The position numbers and the translations under genes are program-made. Shown here one piece after another: positions 22,917 to 29,114 of a DNA stretch of 33,980 bases (its first letter is position 1; each line of letters starts with the position of its first letter). The notes beneath the pieces are model-generated. The model saw only the letters and a program-made list of their open reading frames with translations, ran no database searches and was not told where the DNA came from. The DNA is from Thermoleophilaceae bacterium (lineage in GTDB: Bacteria; Actinomycetota; Thermoleophilia; Solirubrobacterales; Thermoleophilaceae). The stretch spans positions 1 through 33,980 of the forward strand of contig JACCVG010000185.1 in NCBI GenBank assembly GCA_013698335.1. Direction: 5' to 3'.

Positions 22917-23273
22917 ATGCGCACGGCGCTCAACTATCTGATCATCGTCCTCGTCGCGCTCGCGCTGACGCTGATCCCCGGCGGGGACGCCTCGCTCGGC
23001 GTGCTCCTGACACTGCTGACGCTCGCGTTCTTCGCCGGCATCGCGCTGTTCGGCGTGAAGCTCTACCGCGAGAATCAGCTCACGCTCGACGCGCTGACCG
23101 CCGGGCAGCGCACCGTCTTGTACGGCTCGATCGGACTCGCCCTGCTGACGTTCACCGCCACCTCGCGGCTGTTCGGCTTCGGCGGGGTCGGCTTCCTGCT
23201 CTGGTTCGCGCTGCTCGCGATGGCGGCGTTCGGGTTGTACTGGGCCTACACGCAGTCCCGCACCTACGGGTGA
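22917..23273 (+). CDS. Small four-helix membrane protein, unknown
   Basis: A 118-residue protein made almost entirely of membrane helices, at about 5-20, 25-48, 66-84 and 87-110. A short loop with YRENQLTLDALTAGQRTVLYGS lies between helices 2 and 3. No catalytic motif and no recognised family. It is coupled to the downstream acetyltransferase by a 4-nt GTGA overlap. Position after uppP could suggest an envelope role, but nothing in the sequence proves it. Confidence 0.75.
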   Translation: MRTALNYLIIVLVALALTLIPGGDASLGVLLTLLTLAFFAGIALFGVKLYRENQLTLDALTAGQRTVLYGSIGLALLTFTATSRLFGFGGVGFLLWFALLAMAAFGLYWAYTQSRTYG

Positions 23274-23822: not shown

Positions 23823-24107
23823 ATGAACCGTCCCATACGTGGAATCGGGTCCGTACGTGTGGCTCTGGTCGCGGCTGGATGTGTGCTGCTCACGGCTGTC
23901 GGGCCCGCCGGCGCCGTCATCCACGAAGACTCCAAGCGCTGGGATTGCCGGACTATGGGCGACCTCGAGTGCGGACCGGGGCTCGCGCGCTACTGCGATC
24001 GAACGGGCATCCGCTATTGCAACACTGCCCGCGCCTGCCGGCGGATCGCAAACCGGCCGCACCCGCTGCCCGGACGCCGGCTGGCATGGTCCTGTGAGAT
24101 CCAGTGA
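23823..24107 (+). CDS. Secreted six-cysteine small protein
   Basis: A 94-residue protein with a signal peptide (about 1-31, GPAGA|VIH cleavage likely). The mature part of about 63 residues is basic and carries six cysteines (42, 50, 58, 66, 72, 91), enough for three disulfides. I do not recognise the family. Cys20 lies inside the hydrophobic core and is a poor lipobox (AAGC), so lipidation is unlikely but not excluded. The frame runs upstream to 23763; ATG 23823 is chosen because it yields a clean signal peptide. The stop overlaps the first TadE-like gene by 4 nt (ATGA), tying it to the pilus-like operon as a possible exported partner or tip component (inference). Confidence 0.72.
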   Translation: MNRPIRGIGSVRVALVAAGCVLLTAVGPAGAVIHEDSKRWDCRTMGDLECGPGLARYCDRTGIRYCNTARACRRIANRPHPLPGRRLAWSCEIQ

Positions 24108-24472
24108 TGAGGATGCGGGCGGCGCGGGGATCTGCAGGTCAGGCGAGTGTCGAGATGGTCGCGGCGCTGCCGTTCGTCATCTTGATCGCGGCGCTCCTGA
24201 TCCAGTGCGCGATCGGCGGGTACGCGCTCTGGGCGTGTGCGAACGCCGCGCGCGTCGCGGCGCGAGCGGCGCTCGTCGGCGGTGACCTTGACCGCGCCGC
24301 GCGGAGCGCGCTTCCCGACGCCTTCGAGAACCATTTGACGGTGAGGGCTGAAGAACAGAGCGTCGAGGTGTCCTTCGAGCTGCCGCTGCTGGTCTCGGCG
24401 GGCTCGCTGCGGGTTCCGATCGAGGTCGGCAGCGGGCTGCCTCTAGCGGCCGGCGTCGGAGCAGCCCCGTGA
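24104..24472 (+). CDS. TadE-like pseudopilin 1
   Basis: A 122-residue protein with the TadE layout: a short basic N-terminus (MRMRAARGS), the GQASVE motif at 12-17 with the conserved glutamate, and one TM helix at about 18-42. A small extracytoplasmic domain with beta character follows (VRAEEQSVEVSFELPLLV). TadE/TadF minor pseudopilins assist Flp pilus assembly. ATG 24104 overlaps the stop of the cysteine-rich gene; ATG 24107 is an equal alternative. Next gene overlaps by 4 nt. No major Flp pilin or prepilin peptidase is in the window. Confidence 0.8.
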   Translation: MMRMRAARGSAGQASVEMVAALPFVILIAALLIQCAIGGYALWACANAARVAARAALVGGDLDRAARSALPDAFENHLTVRAEEQSVEVSFELPLLVSAGSLRVPIEVGSGLPLAAGVGAAP

Positions 24473-24813
24473 CCGCTGCGCGGTCGAGGGGGGCCAGCGG
24501 GCAGGCGAGCATCGAGTTGCTCGGGGCTCTCCCCGCGGTGGCCATGGTCGGGCTGGTCTGCTTTCAATTGCTCGCAGTCGGCCACGCGACGGTTCTGGCC
24601 GGGGCGGCGGCCGAGGCCGGCGCGCTCGCTCTGGCGGGAGGAGCAAGCGCCTCCGAGGCCGCGCTCGCGGCCGTCCCCGGTGCGCGGCGCATAGACCTAC
24701 GCACCGAGGTCGACGGCGGCACGGTACGCGTCGAGCTGCGGCCGAGCTCGCCGATCAGGGCGGTCGGCGATGCGCTCGTCGTGGAGGCACGCGCTTCGGT
24801 ACGGGCGCCGTGA
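24469..24813 (+). CDS. TadE-like pseudopilin 2
   Basis: A 114-residue paralogue-like neighbour. Basic N-terminus (MTAARSRGAS), GQASIE at 11-16, then a TM helix at about 17-43. An Ala/Gly-rich helix follows (AEAGALALAGGASASEAALAAVPG) and a short strand-rich tail (RIDLRTEVDGGTVRVELRP). It resembles TadE/TadF. It overlaps the preceding and following genes by 4 nt each (GTGA), so stoichiometric production with its neighbours is likely. Confidence 0.78.
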   Translation: MTAARSRGASGQASIELLGALPAVAMVGLVCFQLLAVGHATVLAGAAAEAGALALAGGASASEAALAAVPGARRIDLRTEVDGGTVRVELRPSSPIRAVGDALVVEARASVRAP

Positions 24814-25523
24814 GCGCGATCGCCCGTCGGCCCTTCGCGGAGATCTGGAGAACGGCGGTCGGCTTCCTGATCGAGCCGGTCGACCGGACGGCCTGTTCTC
24901 GAGTGTCGACCGACGGGCTCGTGGTTGCCGTGATCGGCCTCGCTCCCGGTTGCGGTACGACGACCGTCGCGCGGTTGCTGGCGCTCGTACTCGCGCGGGG
25001 CTCAGACAGTGACGCCGCCGTTGTAGTCAGCGACGAGCGGCCGGGCCGGCGCGGCTCACTCGGCCCCGGTGGGCGTCTCGCACGAAGGCTGGGGGTCACC
25101 TCGGCACGCGGCTGCGGCCGCCTTGCGGTCGTCCCTGCCGATGGGCTCCGGGGTGCGGTCGACCAATCGCGCGGACGAGCACCGGTCGTGGTCGACGTCG
25201 ACTACGGCGCCAACTGGGCTGTCGCCGCATCGCTCGCCCACCTCTGCGTGGTAATCGCCGGTGCCGATTCAGATAGCGCGCTGGTCGCGCTCGTCGCCGA
25301 CGAGCTGACAGCCCTTGGCGCAGCGCCGTTGGTGGCGCTCAACCGGGTCGAGTCCGGTTCCACCGCCGACGTGCTGCTCCCCGAGGCGGCTCTGGCTGCT
25401 CGGCTCGTTCGGGCGGGAATGCGGCCTACCGGTCCATTGTGGGATCGCGGCTCCGGCCTGGGTGATCTGTGCAGGCTCGGTGACGGGCGCCGGCAACGGG
25501 TGGCCCTCGATCCCGCGGGATGA
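24810..25523 (+). CDS. TadZ/CpaE-like P-loop protein with degenerate Walker A
   Basis: A 237-residue protein with a ParA/MinD-like outline. The phosphate-loop region GLAPGCGTTTVARLLA (43-58) has the shape of the deviant Walker A KGGxGKTT, but the signature lysine is Ala and the invariant lysine is Thr. VVVSDERPG and VVVDVDYGANWAV look like the A' and B strands. Alternating strands and helices continue to about 215. TadZ proteins, which place the Tad pilus machine at a cell pole, often have an atypical Walker A, and the overlap with two TadE-like genes fits this. ATP binding is doubtful. The last 98 nt overlap the opposing pspC gene. Confidence 0.68.
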   Translation: MSAIARRPFAEIWRTAVGFLIEPVDRTACSRVSTDGLVVAVIGLAPGCGTTTVARLLALVLARGSDSDAAVVVSDERPGRRGSLGPGGRLARRLGVTSARGCGRLAVVPADGLRGAVDQSRGRAPVVVDVDYGANWAVAASLAHLCVVIAGADSDSALVALVADELTALGAAPLVALNRVESGSTADVLLPEAALAARLVRAGMRPTGPLWDRGSGLGDLCRLGDGRRQRVALDPAG

Positions 25524-25689
25524 GGATCCAGAGCGCGATGTAGAGCAGCAGCTGTGGTCCCGGGAGCACGATCGAGATGACGAACGCCACTCGGACGATG
25601 GTCGCCGAGACGCCGAACCGCCGCGCGAGGGCGCCACAAACCCCGGCGACTACGCGTTCGTCAGCCCGTCGGGCGAGCCCCGTGTTCAT
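25426..25689 (-). CDS. PspC domain protein
   Basis: An 87-residue small membrane protein when started at ATG 25689. It shows the PspC pattern: LARRADERVVAGVCGALARRFGVSATIVRVAFVISIVL, then a membrane segment through PGPQLLLYIALWILIPRD. PspC domains sense or respond to envelope stress. The last 25 residues after the domain (PPVAGARHRACTDHPGRSRDPTMDR) are unstructured, and are encoded opposite the 3' end of the TadZ-like gene, a 98-nt convergent overlap. The frame upstream of 25689 (to 25827) is not PspC-like and is probably non-coding. Confidence 0.85.
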   Translation of the reverse strand: MNTGLARRADERVVAGVCGALARRFGVSATIVRVAFVISIVLPGPQLLLYIALWILIPRDRGPPVAGARHRACTDHPGRSRDPTMDR

Positions 25690-25788
25690 CGGTCGACTGT
25701 ACCCGTCGATGACTGCTGGCCGAATGCGGGTGGGGGAGGCTCCGCCACCGATCCCACGGGCTGTTGAAGGGCTTGCGATGCTTGTCGA

Positions 25789-27051
25789 ATGGATCCTCCC
25801 CAGCAGGCACTGGGCGAAGCCGACCAACTCGCGCTGCAGCGACGGGTGCTCGTCGTCCTGTCCGTGTCCCAGGTCTTCGCGGGGGTCGGTTTCTTCATCG
25901 GGTTGGCGGTGATCGCGCTGCTCAGTCGGGAGCTGTCCGGCTCGGCCGCGCTGAGCGGGATGCCCCCGGCGATCGCGGTCATCGGTTCGGCGCTCGCCGC
26001 TCCGCCGATAGCCGCGCTGATGGGACGGTTCGGCCGACGCCCAGGCTTGGTCGCCTGTTACGCGATCGCCGCGCTCGGTTCGCTTGTGATTGTCGCTGCC
26101 GCTGGGCTCGGCAGCTTCCCCGGGGTCTGTGCGGGTGCCTTTGGATTCGGCCTCGGCAGCACCGCGATCCTGCTCGCTCGCTACGCGGGCGCCGACCTCA
26201 GCCCGGCGTCCCGGCGCGGCCGTGCGGTCAGCACCGTTCTGGTGGTCACGACCGTCGGAGCATTGCTCGGGCCCAACCTTTCGCAGGGGGCTGCGACGGT
26301 CGCCGATCGGCTCGGCGGCCCCGCGCTCGCCGGACCGTTTGTCGTCTCAGCCGTCGGCTTCGTGATCGCCGCGCTGATCCTGGCGATGTTCTTGCGGCCG
26401 GATCCGCTGCTCGTCGCGCAGCGGCTCGGGAAAGAGACAAACGGAGGTCAGGATCCAGGGCTCGGCGAGGTTGCTCGCGGTTGGACTCCGCTCGCACTCG
26501 TGGCCCTCGCAACGCTCGTCGCGATCAACGCGGCGATGATCGCGATCATGACGATGACCCCGATCCACCTCGCCGACGGCGGTGGATCGCTCGGCGTGAT
26601 CGGTCTGGTGATTTCACTTCATCTCGGAGCAATGTTCCTGCCCTCTCCTCTGACCGGCTGGGCGAGCGACCGCTATGGCCGGCTGCCTGTGATCGCGGCC
26701 GGGGCGGTCGTCCTGTGCGCCGCCGGTGCGCTCGCTTCGATCGCCGCGCCGGACGCGTTCGTCCTGATCGCGTTTGCGCTGGTCCTGCTCGGGCTCGGCT
26801 GGAACCTCGGGTTAGTCAGCGCCAGCGCGCTGCTGATCGATGCCACGCCGCCGGCCGCGCGTCCCCGCGCGCAGGGCCTCTCCGATCTGGCGATGAGCTT
26901 CGGGGGTGGGGGTGCGAGCCTCGGCTCCGGACTGGCGCTCCAGCACAGCGGCTACAGCTCGCTCGGTCTCGCGGGCGTCGTGATCGGGGTGCTGCTGGTG
27001 CTCACGGCGATCGCCGCGCGCCGCCTTCCCGAGATGGCCCCCCAGACTTGA
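25789..27051 (+). CDS. MFS transporter
   Basis: A 420-residue major facilitator superfamily protein with about 12 membrane helices in two halves joined by a cytoplasmic loop near 205-230 (RLGKETNGGQDPGLGEVARG). The MFS motif A appears as GRFGRRPGLV between helices 2 and 3, and in the second half as GWASDRYGRLP. Substrate cannot be read; drug or metabolite efflux is the common role of this type. ATG 25789; divergent from pspC with a 99-nt gap. The next gene starts 4 nt after the stop. Confidence 0.93.
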   Translation: MDPPQQALGEADQLALQRRVLVVLSVSQVFAGVGFFIGLAVIALLSRELSGSAALSGMPPAIAVIGSALAAPPIAALMGRFGRRPGLVACYAIAALGSLVIVAAAGLGSFPGVCAGAFGFGLGSTAILLARYAGADLSPASRRGRAVSTVLVVTTVGALLGPNLSQGAATVADRLGGPALAGPFVVSAVGFVIAALILAMFLRPDPLLVAQRLGKETNGGQDPGLGEVARGWTPLALVALATLVAINAAMIAIMTMTPIHLADGGGSLGVIGLVISLHLGAMFLPSPLTGWASDRYGRLPVIAAGAVVLCAAGALASIAAPDAFVLIAFALVLLGLGWNLGLVSASALLIDATPPAARPRAQGLSDLAMSFGGGGASLGSGLALQHSGYSSLGLAGVVIGVLLVLTAIAARRLPEMAPQT

Positions 27052-27055
27052 CGCC

Positions 27056-27673
27056 GTGAGGTCCCGTCTGCTCAGCGAACGGTTCACCGAGGCGCTCGCC
27101 TACGCAGCGGAGCTGCACGCGGGGCACCGCCGCAAGGGCCCCGGAGACCTGCCCTACATGGGCCACTTGCTCGCCGTCGCCAGCCTGGTGCTCGAGGACG
27201 GGGGATCCGAGCAGGAGGCGATCGCCGCGCTGCTACACGACGCGATCGAGGATCAGCCGCGGGACGGTGGAACCCGGACGGAGATCGGAGATCGGTTCGG
27301 GCCCGCGGTGCTGGCGATCGTCGAGTGCTGCACCGACGCCGACAGCCACCCGAAGCCGCCGTGGGCCGAGCGCAAGAACGAGTACCTGCGTCACCTGCGC
27401 GAGGACGACCTGCCGGAGGGGGTGCTGCGCGTGGTGGCCGCCGACAAGCTCCACAACGCTCGCTCGTTGCTGAGCGATTACCGCGCCGTGGGCGATCAGC
27501 TCTGGATCCGCTTCAACGCGGGCAGCGCCGAGGGACAGCTCTGGTACTACGGGGCGGTCGCAGACGTGCTGGTCGAGCGGGGCGCCGGGCCGCTGGCGGC
27601 GGAGCTGCGCGAGACGGTGGACGAGCTGGTTCGGCTGGTGGAAGCCGAGCAGTCGGTTTCCCCGGAGGGGTGA
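27056..27673 (+). CDS. RelA/SpoT-type HD hydrolase (MESH1-like)
   Basis: A 205-residue stand-alone HD protein resembling the hydrolase half of SpoT/Rel enzymes. Metal ligands are His37 (YMGHLLAV), His61-Asp62 (LLHDAIED, with Glu65-Asp66) and Asp130 (AADKLHNARSLLSDY). The order GHRRKG...HLLAVASLVLEDGG...ALLHDAIED...FGPAVLAIVECCTD follows the Rel hydrolase domain. There is no synthetase or TGS/ACT domain. It could be a small alarmone hydrolase clearing (p)ppGpp, or, like MESH1, act on other nucleotides; both are inference. GTG start 4 nt after the MFS stop. Confidence 0.85.
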   Translation: MRSRLLSERFTEALAYAAELHAGHRRKGPGDLPYMGHLLAVASLVLEDGGSEQEAIAALLHDAIEDQPRDGGTRTEIGDRFGPAVLAIVECCTDADSHPKPPWAERKNEYLRHLREDDLPEGVLRVVAADKLHNARSLLSDYRAVGDQLWIRFNAGSAEGQLWYYGAVADVLVERGAGPLAAELRETVDELVRLVEAEQSVSPEG

Positions 27674-27785: not shown

Positions 27786-29114
27786 ATGGGCAGTCACCGC
27801 AGCGAAGCGGGTCAGGCGATCGTGCTCGTCATCGGGGCGATCGCGGTCGCGTTATGTGTCGTACTCGTCTTGGGTGCCTTCGGACAAGCGATGCTCGGCA
27901 AGGGGCGCCATCAACGGGGTGTCGACCTGGCGGCGGTCTGCGCGGGCCAGGTGATGCGTGATCTGCATCCCCGGTTGTTCGAGCCGGCTCGGCTTTCCGA
28001 CGGCCGGATCAATCCCAGCCATCTCACGCGAGCCCTCTATCTGAGTGAGGCGCGTGAGGCGGCGCTCAGATGTGGGCGGCGCAACGGTGTGGCCATCGAG
28101 CCTCGCTGGGTGAAGTTCGTCGATGCGGCCTCAATGGCGCCCGTTCGGGTGGCGGTTTCCGTTCGCGGTTCTCAGCGCATCAGAGAACCCGTCGATTCCG
28201 AAGTCCCGATCCACGCGGAGGCGCAGGCCGAGATCGTCCCGGTCGTGTCACCGCCCTCCGCACCCGCCGAGCCTTCCGGCGGCGAGTACTCGGGTCCGCT
28301 CGAGTACCGCCAAGGCAAGCCGATGCGCCCCGATGTCGCGCTCGCCTTCGACCGCATGGCGGCGGCGGCGCGCAGGGAGGCGGGTATCGCCCTGACGATC
28401 ACGAGCGCGTTCCGCACCAACGCCGAGCAGGCCGGCCTGTTCGCCGCCAACCCGAACCCGAAGTGGGTCGCTCCGCCCGGGACGAGCCTCCACCGGTTGG
28501 GCACCGAACTCGATCTCGGACCGCCGTCGGCCTACGGCTGGCTCGCGTCCAACTCCGAGCGCTTCGGGTTCCTCAAGCGGTATCCGCACGAACCCTGGCA
28601 CTTCGGTTACACCCGCAATCCGGGAACGACCTCCGTCGGCTTCGGGACTCGGTCGACTCCCGACGGCCGCCGCAGCTCAGTCCCGTCCTTCGTTCCCGCG
28701 CGCTACCAGGAGCCGATCGCGACTGCCGCCCAGCGCTGGAACGTTTCAGCGGGACTGCTCGCGGCTCAGCTCTTCGCCGAGAGCAATTTCAACCCGGCCG
28801 CGCAGTCGAGCGCCGGAGCTCAGGGCATCGCCCAGTTCATCCCGGGCACGGCGCGCGCCTACGGCCTGTCGAATCCCTTCGATGCCGAGCAGGCGATCGA
28901 CGCCCAAGCGCATCTGATGCGCGACCTGCTCCGGCAGTTCGCCTCCGTCCCGCTGGCGCTCGCGGCCTACAATGCCGGCCCCGGCGCGGTTTCGGCCTGC
29001 GGGTGTATCCCGCCCTACCCCGAGACCCGGGCCTACGTCGCGAAGGTCCTAGGCCTGCTCTCGGGTGGGGGTGAGCTCGTCGGTCAGGGCTTCGAGGTCA
29101 AGCTGGTCCGCTGA
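27786..29114 (+). CDS. TadE/G-like N-terminus fused to VanY-type peptidase and SLT transglycosylase
   Basis: A 442-residue three-part protein. Residues 1-60 have the TadE/TadG pattern: a short polar start, AGQAIVLVIGAIAVALCVVLVLGAF as membrane helix, then RGVDLAAVCAG. Residues about 60-165 form a variable extracytoplasmic part ending in a Pro/Ser linker. Residues about 170-280 are a D-Ala-D-Ala carboxypeptidase/endopeptidase of family M15B: SAFRTNAEQ, zinc ligands His236 and Asp243 in SLHRLGTELD, Glu269 and His272 in HEPWHFGY. Residues about 305-425 are an SLT lytic transglycosylase: catalytic Glu332 in FAESNFNP, GIAQFIPGTA, AYNAGPGAV. All key residues are present, so one protein should cut both glycan and peptide in the wall. 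ATG 27786; the preceding 112-nt gap holds a GGGCCG/CGGCCC hairpin. Confidence 0.88.
   Translation: MGSHRSEAGQAIVLVIGAIAVALCVVLVLGAFGQAMLGKGRHQRGVDLAAVCAGQVMRDLHPRLFEPARLSDGRINPSHLTRALYLSEAREAALRCGRRNGVAIEPRWVKFVDAASMAPVRVAVSVRGSQRIREPVDSEVPIHAEAQAEIVPVVSPPSAPAEPSGGEYSGPLEYRQGKPMRPDVALAFDRMAAAARREAGIALTITSAFRTNAEQAGLFAANPNPKWVAPPGTSLHRLGTELDLGPPSAYGWLASNSERFGFLKRYPHEPWHFGYTRNPGTTSVGFGTRSTPDGRRSSVPSFVPARYQEPIATAAQRWNVSAGLLAAQLFAESNFNPAAQSSAGAQGIAQFIPGTARAYGLSNPFDAEQAIDAQAHLMRDLLRQFASVPLALAAYNAGPGAVSACGCIPPYPETRAYVAKVLGLLSGGGELVGQGFEVKLVR

What the first reader, a model, noticed from the sequence alone, without database searches (positions are those of the whole stretch)
23823..25523. Overlapping operon of a secreted six-Cys protein, two TadE-like pseudopilins and a TadZ-like protein
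Four genes overlap by 4 nt each. A disulfide-rich exported peptide translated with minor pseudopilins and a polar-localisation-type protein is not a standard tad locus. The six-Cys protein might be a cargo, tip adhesin or assembly factor for a Flp-like pilus or pseudopilus secretion system.
Basis: partly seen in the sequence, partly recalled or inferred. Interest (0 to 1): 0.58.

Follow-up and report, generated by a model that had tools for sequence, protein, structure and literature searches.

The report
Tad pilus tip genes with wall-cutting TadG
The flagged genes are part of a conserved Tad-pilus minor-pilin cassette of soil actinobacteria whose TadG-like member carries two cell-wall-cutting enzymes, suggesting a pilus that bores its own way through the wall; the six-cysteine gene that drew attention is a local addition of this one lineage.

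Summary
In detail: an exported-looking six-Cys protein, two TadE-like pseudopilins and a TadZ/Ssd-like protein lie in one chain with 1-4 nt overlaps. The emphasis on the six-Cys gene does not: it has no relative in 61 genomes, GTDB contigs or IMG/VR, and it is absent upstream of tadE in 18 syntenic relatives. What is conserved is the rest, plus a gene outside the given coordinates: tadE-tadE-(MinD-fold protein without a Walker A lysine)-tadG, where TadG (27786-29114) carries a VanY carboxypeptidase and an SLT lytic transglycosylase with invariant active sites. The cassette occurs across the order and, without the TadZ-like gene, in a second Thermoleophilia family. All 45 TadA-bearing genomes of 61 examined have it; all six genomes without it lack TadA. 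In eight genomes TadA is the only T2SSE-family ATPase and the cassette is still present. Published work places TadE/TadF/TadG as a pilus-tip complex and states that no peptidoglycan hydrolase has been reported with Tad pili. Best reading: a split Tad system whose tip complex carries its own wall-cutting enzymes. The motor was not found in this 85%-complete assembly. Function is inferred, not shown. New variant of a known kind.

The parts
23823..24107 (+). Small exported-looking six-cysteine protein, 94 aa; lineage-specific accessory gene
   Evidence: no relatives; absent upstream of tadE1 in 18 relatives
24107..24472 (+). tadE1, Rv3655c/TadE-type minor pilin (GTG 24104 also possible as start); G/QASVE processing-type motif
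   Evidence: Pfam TadE 6.3e-5, NF041390 2.2e-5, G11 and E16 invariant in 14 aligned sequences
24469..24813 (+). tadE2, second TadE-like minor pilin (TadF position); G/QASIE motif
   Evidence: NF041390 0.002; Pfam TadE in 7 of 16 members, best 0.0037; alignment A1
24810..25523 (+). TadZ/Ssd-like MinD-fold protein lacking the Walker A lysine (GLAPGCGTTT), a likely pseudo-ATPase
   Evidence: A3 alignment 12/12 without K; TIGR03815 in 2 of 12 members; model and MinD match
25426..27673 (.). Three genes lying between tadZ and tadG in this genome: PspC-like (-), MFS-like transporter (+), HD-like domain protein (+), named from sequence inspection; not part of the conserved cassette
   Evidence: tadZ-tadG distance is -26 to 128 nt in 14 relatives against 2262 nt here
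27786..29114 (+). tadG-like protein: Tad/Rv3654c-type N-terminal pilin segment, VanY (M15B) D,D-carboxypeptidase domain, SLT lytic transglycosylase domain
   Evidence: VanY and SLT in 15/15, Tad segment in 13/15; invariant SxHxxxTELD, ExWH, catalytic E; TIGR03816 5e-4

Best explanation
This is the minor-pilin (tip) arm of a split Tad (type IVc) pilus system in a Thermoleophilaceae-type actinobacterium. TadE1, TadE2 and the TadG-like protein are membrane-inserted minor pilins that form the tip/initiation complex. The TadZ/Ssd-like protein is a degenerate MinD-fold partner on the cytoplasmic side that helps place or organise the machine. The TadA motor and TadB/TadC platform are encoded elsewhere in relatives. 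The special feature is that TadG displays a D,D-carboxypeptidase (VanY) and a lytic transglycosylase (SLT) outside the membrane, so the emerging pilus tip, or its base, cuts the cell's own peptidoglycan and lets the filament cross a thick wall. The six-Cys protein is a recent, dispensable exported accessory translated with the operon. Shown: gene order, homology, conserved catalytic residues, predicted MinD fold, co-occurrence with TadA. Inferred: tip assembly, direction of cutting, role of the TadZ-like and six-Cys proteins.
For: Cassette order is conserved: tadE2 and tadG lie on the same strand within 2.5 kb in 40 of the 44 genomes that carry both on one contig, median 742 nt, with a MinD-like or eroded MinD-like ORF in most of the 11 gaps read in other genera and families. 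tadZ and tadG overlap or abut in relatives. VanY and SLT are in 15/15 members with invariant catalytic motifs and also in the more distant family f5. One TadG copy per genome. TadA in 45 of 61 genomes, all 45 with the cassette; the six genomes without it all lack TadA (Fisher p=1.4e-4, not corrected for phylogeny). Eight genomes at least 91% complete have TadA as their only T2SSE ATPase and still have the cassette, which excludes a PilB-only role. TadG N-terminus matches the Rv3654c family and TadE the Rv3655c family of the M. tuberculosis flp operon. Literature: TadE/F/G tip complexes with TadG bearing a C-terminal modular domain (PMC12075869; CpaL in PMC12607857); two distant tad loci both needed in Micrococcus luteus (PMC4322843).
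Against: No TadA, TadB/TadC or RcpC was found in this genome itself; other cassette-bearing family members (G007, G015 and several incomplete genomes) and the 93%-complete G051 also lack TadA. No Flp pilin was seen beside the TadABC loci read. TadZ membership rests on the fold and weak profile hits. In this genome tadG is 2.3 kb from tadZ behind three unrelated genes. No expression or biochemical data exist.
Confidence: 0.62

Rival explanations
1. The TadG enzymatic tip attacks the peptidoglycan of other cells (contact-dependent killing or predation), as the Kil/Tad pilus tips of Myxococcus do, rather than the producer's own wall.
For: Tad pili with variable tips mediate contact-dependent killing in Myxococcus xanthus (PMC12075869). 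TadG carries two complementary wall-cutting domains.
Against: One copy per genome, about 60% identity across the family and near-universal presence with TadA look like housekeeping rather than a weapon. No recurrent extra gene that could be immunity was seen in the loci read.
Confidence: 0.15
2. The cassette is a small static cell-wall complex: TadE/TadG-like membrane anchors hold a VanY-SLT enzyme for ordinary wall growth, with no pilus involved.
For: This genome, G007 and G015 have the cassette but no detected TadA. Chromosomal neighbours in relatives include uppP, a wall-lipid gene.
Against: All six genomes without the cassette lack TadA, and all 45 TadA-bearing genomes have it. TadE processing-type motifs G/QASVE are conserved. 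Most TadA-less carriers are incomplete genomes.
Confidence: 0.18
3. The six-Cys protein is the functional point of the operon: a conserved cargo or tip adhesin of a Flp-like pilus.
For: It is exported-looking, in a coding frame and overlaps tadE1.
Against: No relatives in 61 genomes, GTDB contigs or IMG/VR. Absent upstream of tadE1 in 18 syntenic relatives. It cannot be the general function of a cassette that is kept without it.
Confidence: 0.04

Closest known systems
Mycobacterium tuberculosis flp operon Rv3654c-Rv3660c (tadF/tadE/flp/tadC/tadB/tadA/tadZ)
   Same: Homologous parts: TadE (Rv3655c family), TadG-like N-terminus (Rv3654c family, TIGR03816) and Ssd/TadZ (TIGR03815).
   Different: Here the minor-pilin and TadZ genes form their own cassette apart from the motor, there are two TadEs, and the Rv3654c-like protein is extended by VanY and SLT domains.
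TadE/TadF/TadG tip complexes (Kil tips of Myxococcus xanthus; CpaJ/CpaK/CpaL of Caulobacter)
   Same: Two small minor pilins plus one large one with a C-terminal modular domain, encoded together.
   Different: Known tip domains are vWA or of unknown fold. Peptidoglycan-cleaving domains have not been reported with Tad pili (PMC12307814).
Micrococcus luteus tad-1 and tad-2 loci
   Same: Tad parts split over distant loci that work together; TadG-like PF13400 proteins end the clusters (PMC4322843).
   Different: Both M. luteus loci carry motor genes; here the cassette carries none, and TadG has enzyme domains.
Specialised lytic transglycosylases of trans-envelope machines (VirB1 of type IV secretion, FlgJ/SltF of flagella)
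   Same: A machine-dedicated wall-cutting enzyme (comparison from general knowledge).
   Different: There a separate soluble enzyme; here fused to a minor pilin and combined with a D,D-carboxypeptidase.

Membership tests
Tad (Flp, type IVc) pilus system | TadA ATPase and TadB/TadC platform in the genome | tested here: inconclusive
   Not found in the 85%-complete own assembly; TadA present in 45 of 61 genomes, all with the cassette
Tad (Flp, type IVc) pilus system | TadE/TadF minor pilins with G/XXXXE processing motif | tested here: met
   G/QASVE and G/QASIE; G and E conserved (D in place of E in two tadE2); Pfam/NCBIfam hits
Tad (Flp, type IVc) pilus system | Flp major pilin gene | tested here: inconclusive
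   Motif scan of the TadABC loci read found no Flp; genome-wide Flp search not run
Tad (Flp, type IVc) pilus system | Prepilin peptidase TadV | not tested
TadZ/CpaE/Ssd | MinD/ParA fold | tested here: met
   AlphaFold model, top solved structure MinD 1hyq, E 3.9e-7, TM 0.56
TadZ/CpaE/Ssd | Family profile match | tested here: inconclusive
   TIGR03815 in 2 of 12 members, best 1.1e-5; none for the window protein
MinD/ParA ATPase (active) | Deviant Walker A with catalytic lysine | tested here: not met
   Lysine replaced by T/A/S in 12 of 12
TadG / Rv3654c-like (PF13400, TIGR03816) | N-terminal Tad segment | tested here: met
   PF13400 in 13 of 15 members, best 1.6e-6; the window member alone 0.0032, below the curated cut-off; TIGR03816 5e-4, below cut-off
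VanY D,D-carboxypeptidase and SLT transglycosylase | Intact catalytic motifs | tested here: met
   SxHxxxTELD, ExWH and the SLT glutamate invariant in 15 sequences; activity not tested
T4aP / type II secretion pseudopilus | Association with PilB/GspE-type motor | tested here: not met
   Eight near-complete genomes with the cassette have no PilB/PilT-type hit, only TadA

The most novel reading that the evidence does not exclude
A self-boring Tad pilus: a minor-pilin tip complex in which TadG carries two different peptidoglycan-cleaving enzymes, so that the pilus opens its own passage through a thick actinobacterial wall; in this lineage a disulfide-rich exported protein has been added to the operon.
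Probability: 0.4. Interest if true: 0.75.

Novelty: new variant of a known kind. Interest (0 to 1): 0.52.

Why it matters
How type IV filaments get through thick peptidoglycan in monoderm bacteria is open, and a 2025 structural paper notes that no peptidoglycan hydrolase or lytic transglycosylase has been reported with Tad pili (PMC12307814). A conserved minor pilin fused to both a carboxypeptidase and a transglycosylase gives a concrete candidate that can be knocked out and assayed in cultured Solirubrobacter or Conexibacter.

Tried and rejected
Six-Cys relatives: the best hit outside the own genome (G032, E 3.5e-4) lies antisense to an apparent transposase in an ORF that is not cysteine-rich, and was rejected. 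The weak RNF4 RING match of the six-Cys protein in the PDB (E 0.005) was dismissed as a cysteine-composition match; its AlphaFold model is poor (pLDDT 57). A T4aP/T2SS pseudopilus reading was rejected by genomes with the cassette but no PilB. The promoter/terminator scan gave nothing above chance. Outside Thermoleophilia only the SLT part of TadG matched.

Full report
What was checked. The four flagged genes exist as described. The six-Cys ORF (23823-24107) shares TGATG or GTGA with tadE1; tadE1/tadE2 and tadE2/tadZ overlap by GTGA. Codon usage favours the six-Cys frame over the other five, and the N-terminus reads as a signal peptide, so it is probably a gene.

What is conserved. A search of 61 genomes (own plus 60 relatives) with the TadZ-like protein gave matches in 19 relatives, 18 of them in the same family. 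Reading the loci showed tadE1-tadE2-tadZ in fixed order in 17 of them, often preceded by a pyrophosphatase, uppP, a 118-aa membrane protein and sometimes a GNAT gene, and followed by a gene that in the window lies at 27786-29114, then often uvrC, rapZ, gap and pgk. In 10 of 14 relatives tadZ and that gene overlap by 4-26 nt; in the window three genes separate them. Named contigs place the family in Thermoleophilaceae MAGs.

The six-Cys gene. No relative was found above chance in the 60 related genomes, in GTDB contigs or in IMG/VR. None of the 18 syntenic relatives read, including the new locus L101, has a comparable gene before tadE1. It is an orphan of this lineage.

The downstream gene. Its product has a Tad/TadG-type N-terminal segment (PF13400 in 13 of 15 members; TIGR03816 Rv3654c-type 5e-4), a VanY domain and an SLT domain in 15 of 15. 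The zinc-site motifs SxHxxxTELD and ExWH and the SLT glutamate are invariant. It occurs once per genome across the order and in one more Thermoleophilia family, where tadE-tadE-tadG occur without the TadZ-like gene; elsewhere in the phylum sample only SLT-level matches remain. Forty of the 44 genomes with tadE2 and tadG on one contig have them within 2.5 kb on one strand.

The TadZ-like protein. Its model has a MinD/ParA fold. The Walker A lysine is missing in 12 of 12 family members, and in other families of the order the ORF in the same place has a still more eroded P-loop region (judged by eye and by position, not by a significant profile match except in L130). Two members match the actinobacterial Ssd/CpaE profile. 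It is best read as a pseudo-ATPase of the TadZ/Ssd type.

The motor. The window's genome has PilB and PilT homologues but no TadA, TadB/TadC or RcpC at 85% completeness. Relatives have TadA-TadB-TadC at a separate locus; one (G001) also has a second, standard tad locus with RcpC, a TadZ-type protein, TadE and TadABC. Across 61 genomes all 45 with TadA have the cassette, and the six without the cassette lack TadA. In eight near-complete genomes TadA is the only T2SSE ATPase. TadA was told from PilB/PilT by the stretch of the T2SSE profile matched (about 3-280) and its score. The association is not corrected for phylogeny; the losses amount to perhaps two or three independent events.

Interpretation. 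Recent work proposes that TadE, TadF and TadG form the tip complex of Tad pili, with TadG bearing a C-terminal modular domain (PMC12075869, PMC12607857). A 2025 paper states that no peptidoglycan hydrolase has been reported with Tad pili (PMC12307814), and a review treats wall passage in monoderms as an open matter (PMC6916266). A TadG with two wall-cutting domains, conserved with the TadA motor, fits a pilus tip or base that opens the wall. Whether it cuts the producer's own wall or that of neighbours is not shown; single-copy conservation favours the own wall.

Verdict.

Noticed in passing
window 25426-27673: PspC-like, MFS-like and HD-domain-like genes sit between tadZ-like and tadG in this genome; in most relatives the two genes overlap or are adjacent.
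   Followed up: partly
window 22917-23273: 118-aa membrane protein without a family above cut-off, conserved between uppP and the tad cassette in about ten relatives.
   Followed up: partly
L115 (G001:C13:88000-103000): A second, standard tad locus (RcpC, TadZ-type protein, TadE, TadA, TadB, TadC) followed by a protein with bacterial TSP3 repeats and an N-terminal GQTAAEF pilin-like motif.
   Followed up: partly
L114, L116 (G001, G003 TadABC loci): Split TadA-TadB-TadC loci near lon and rsmH with no recognisable Flp pilin beside them; the major pilin of this system is unidentified.
   Followed up: partly
L142-L147 (family f5 of the same class): tadE, a short second tadE and tadG::VanY::SLT occur without the TadZ-like gene, so the enzyme-bearing module may be older than the TadZ-like addition.
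   Followed up: yes
L123-L133, gap between tadE2 and tadG: The MinD-like ORF appears to be extremely fast-evolving across the order, with the P-loop eroded to different degrees while gene order is kept.
   Followed up: partly
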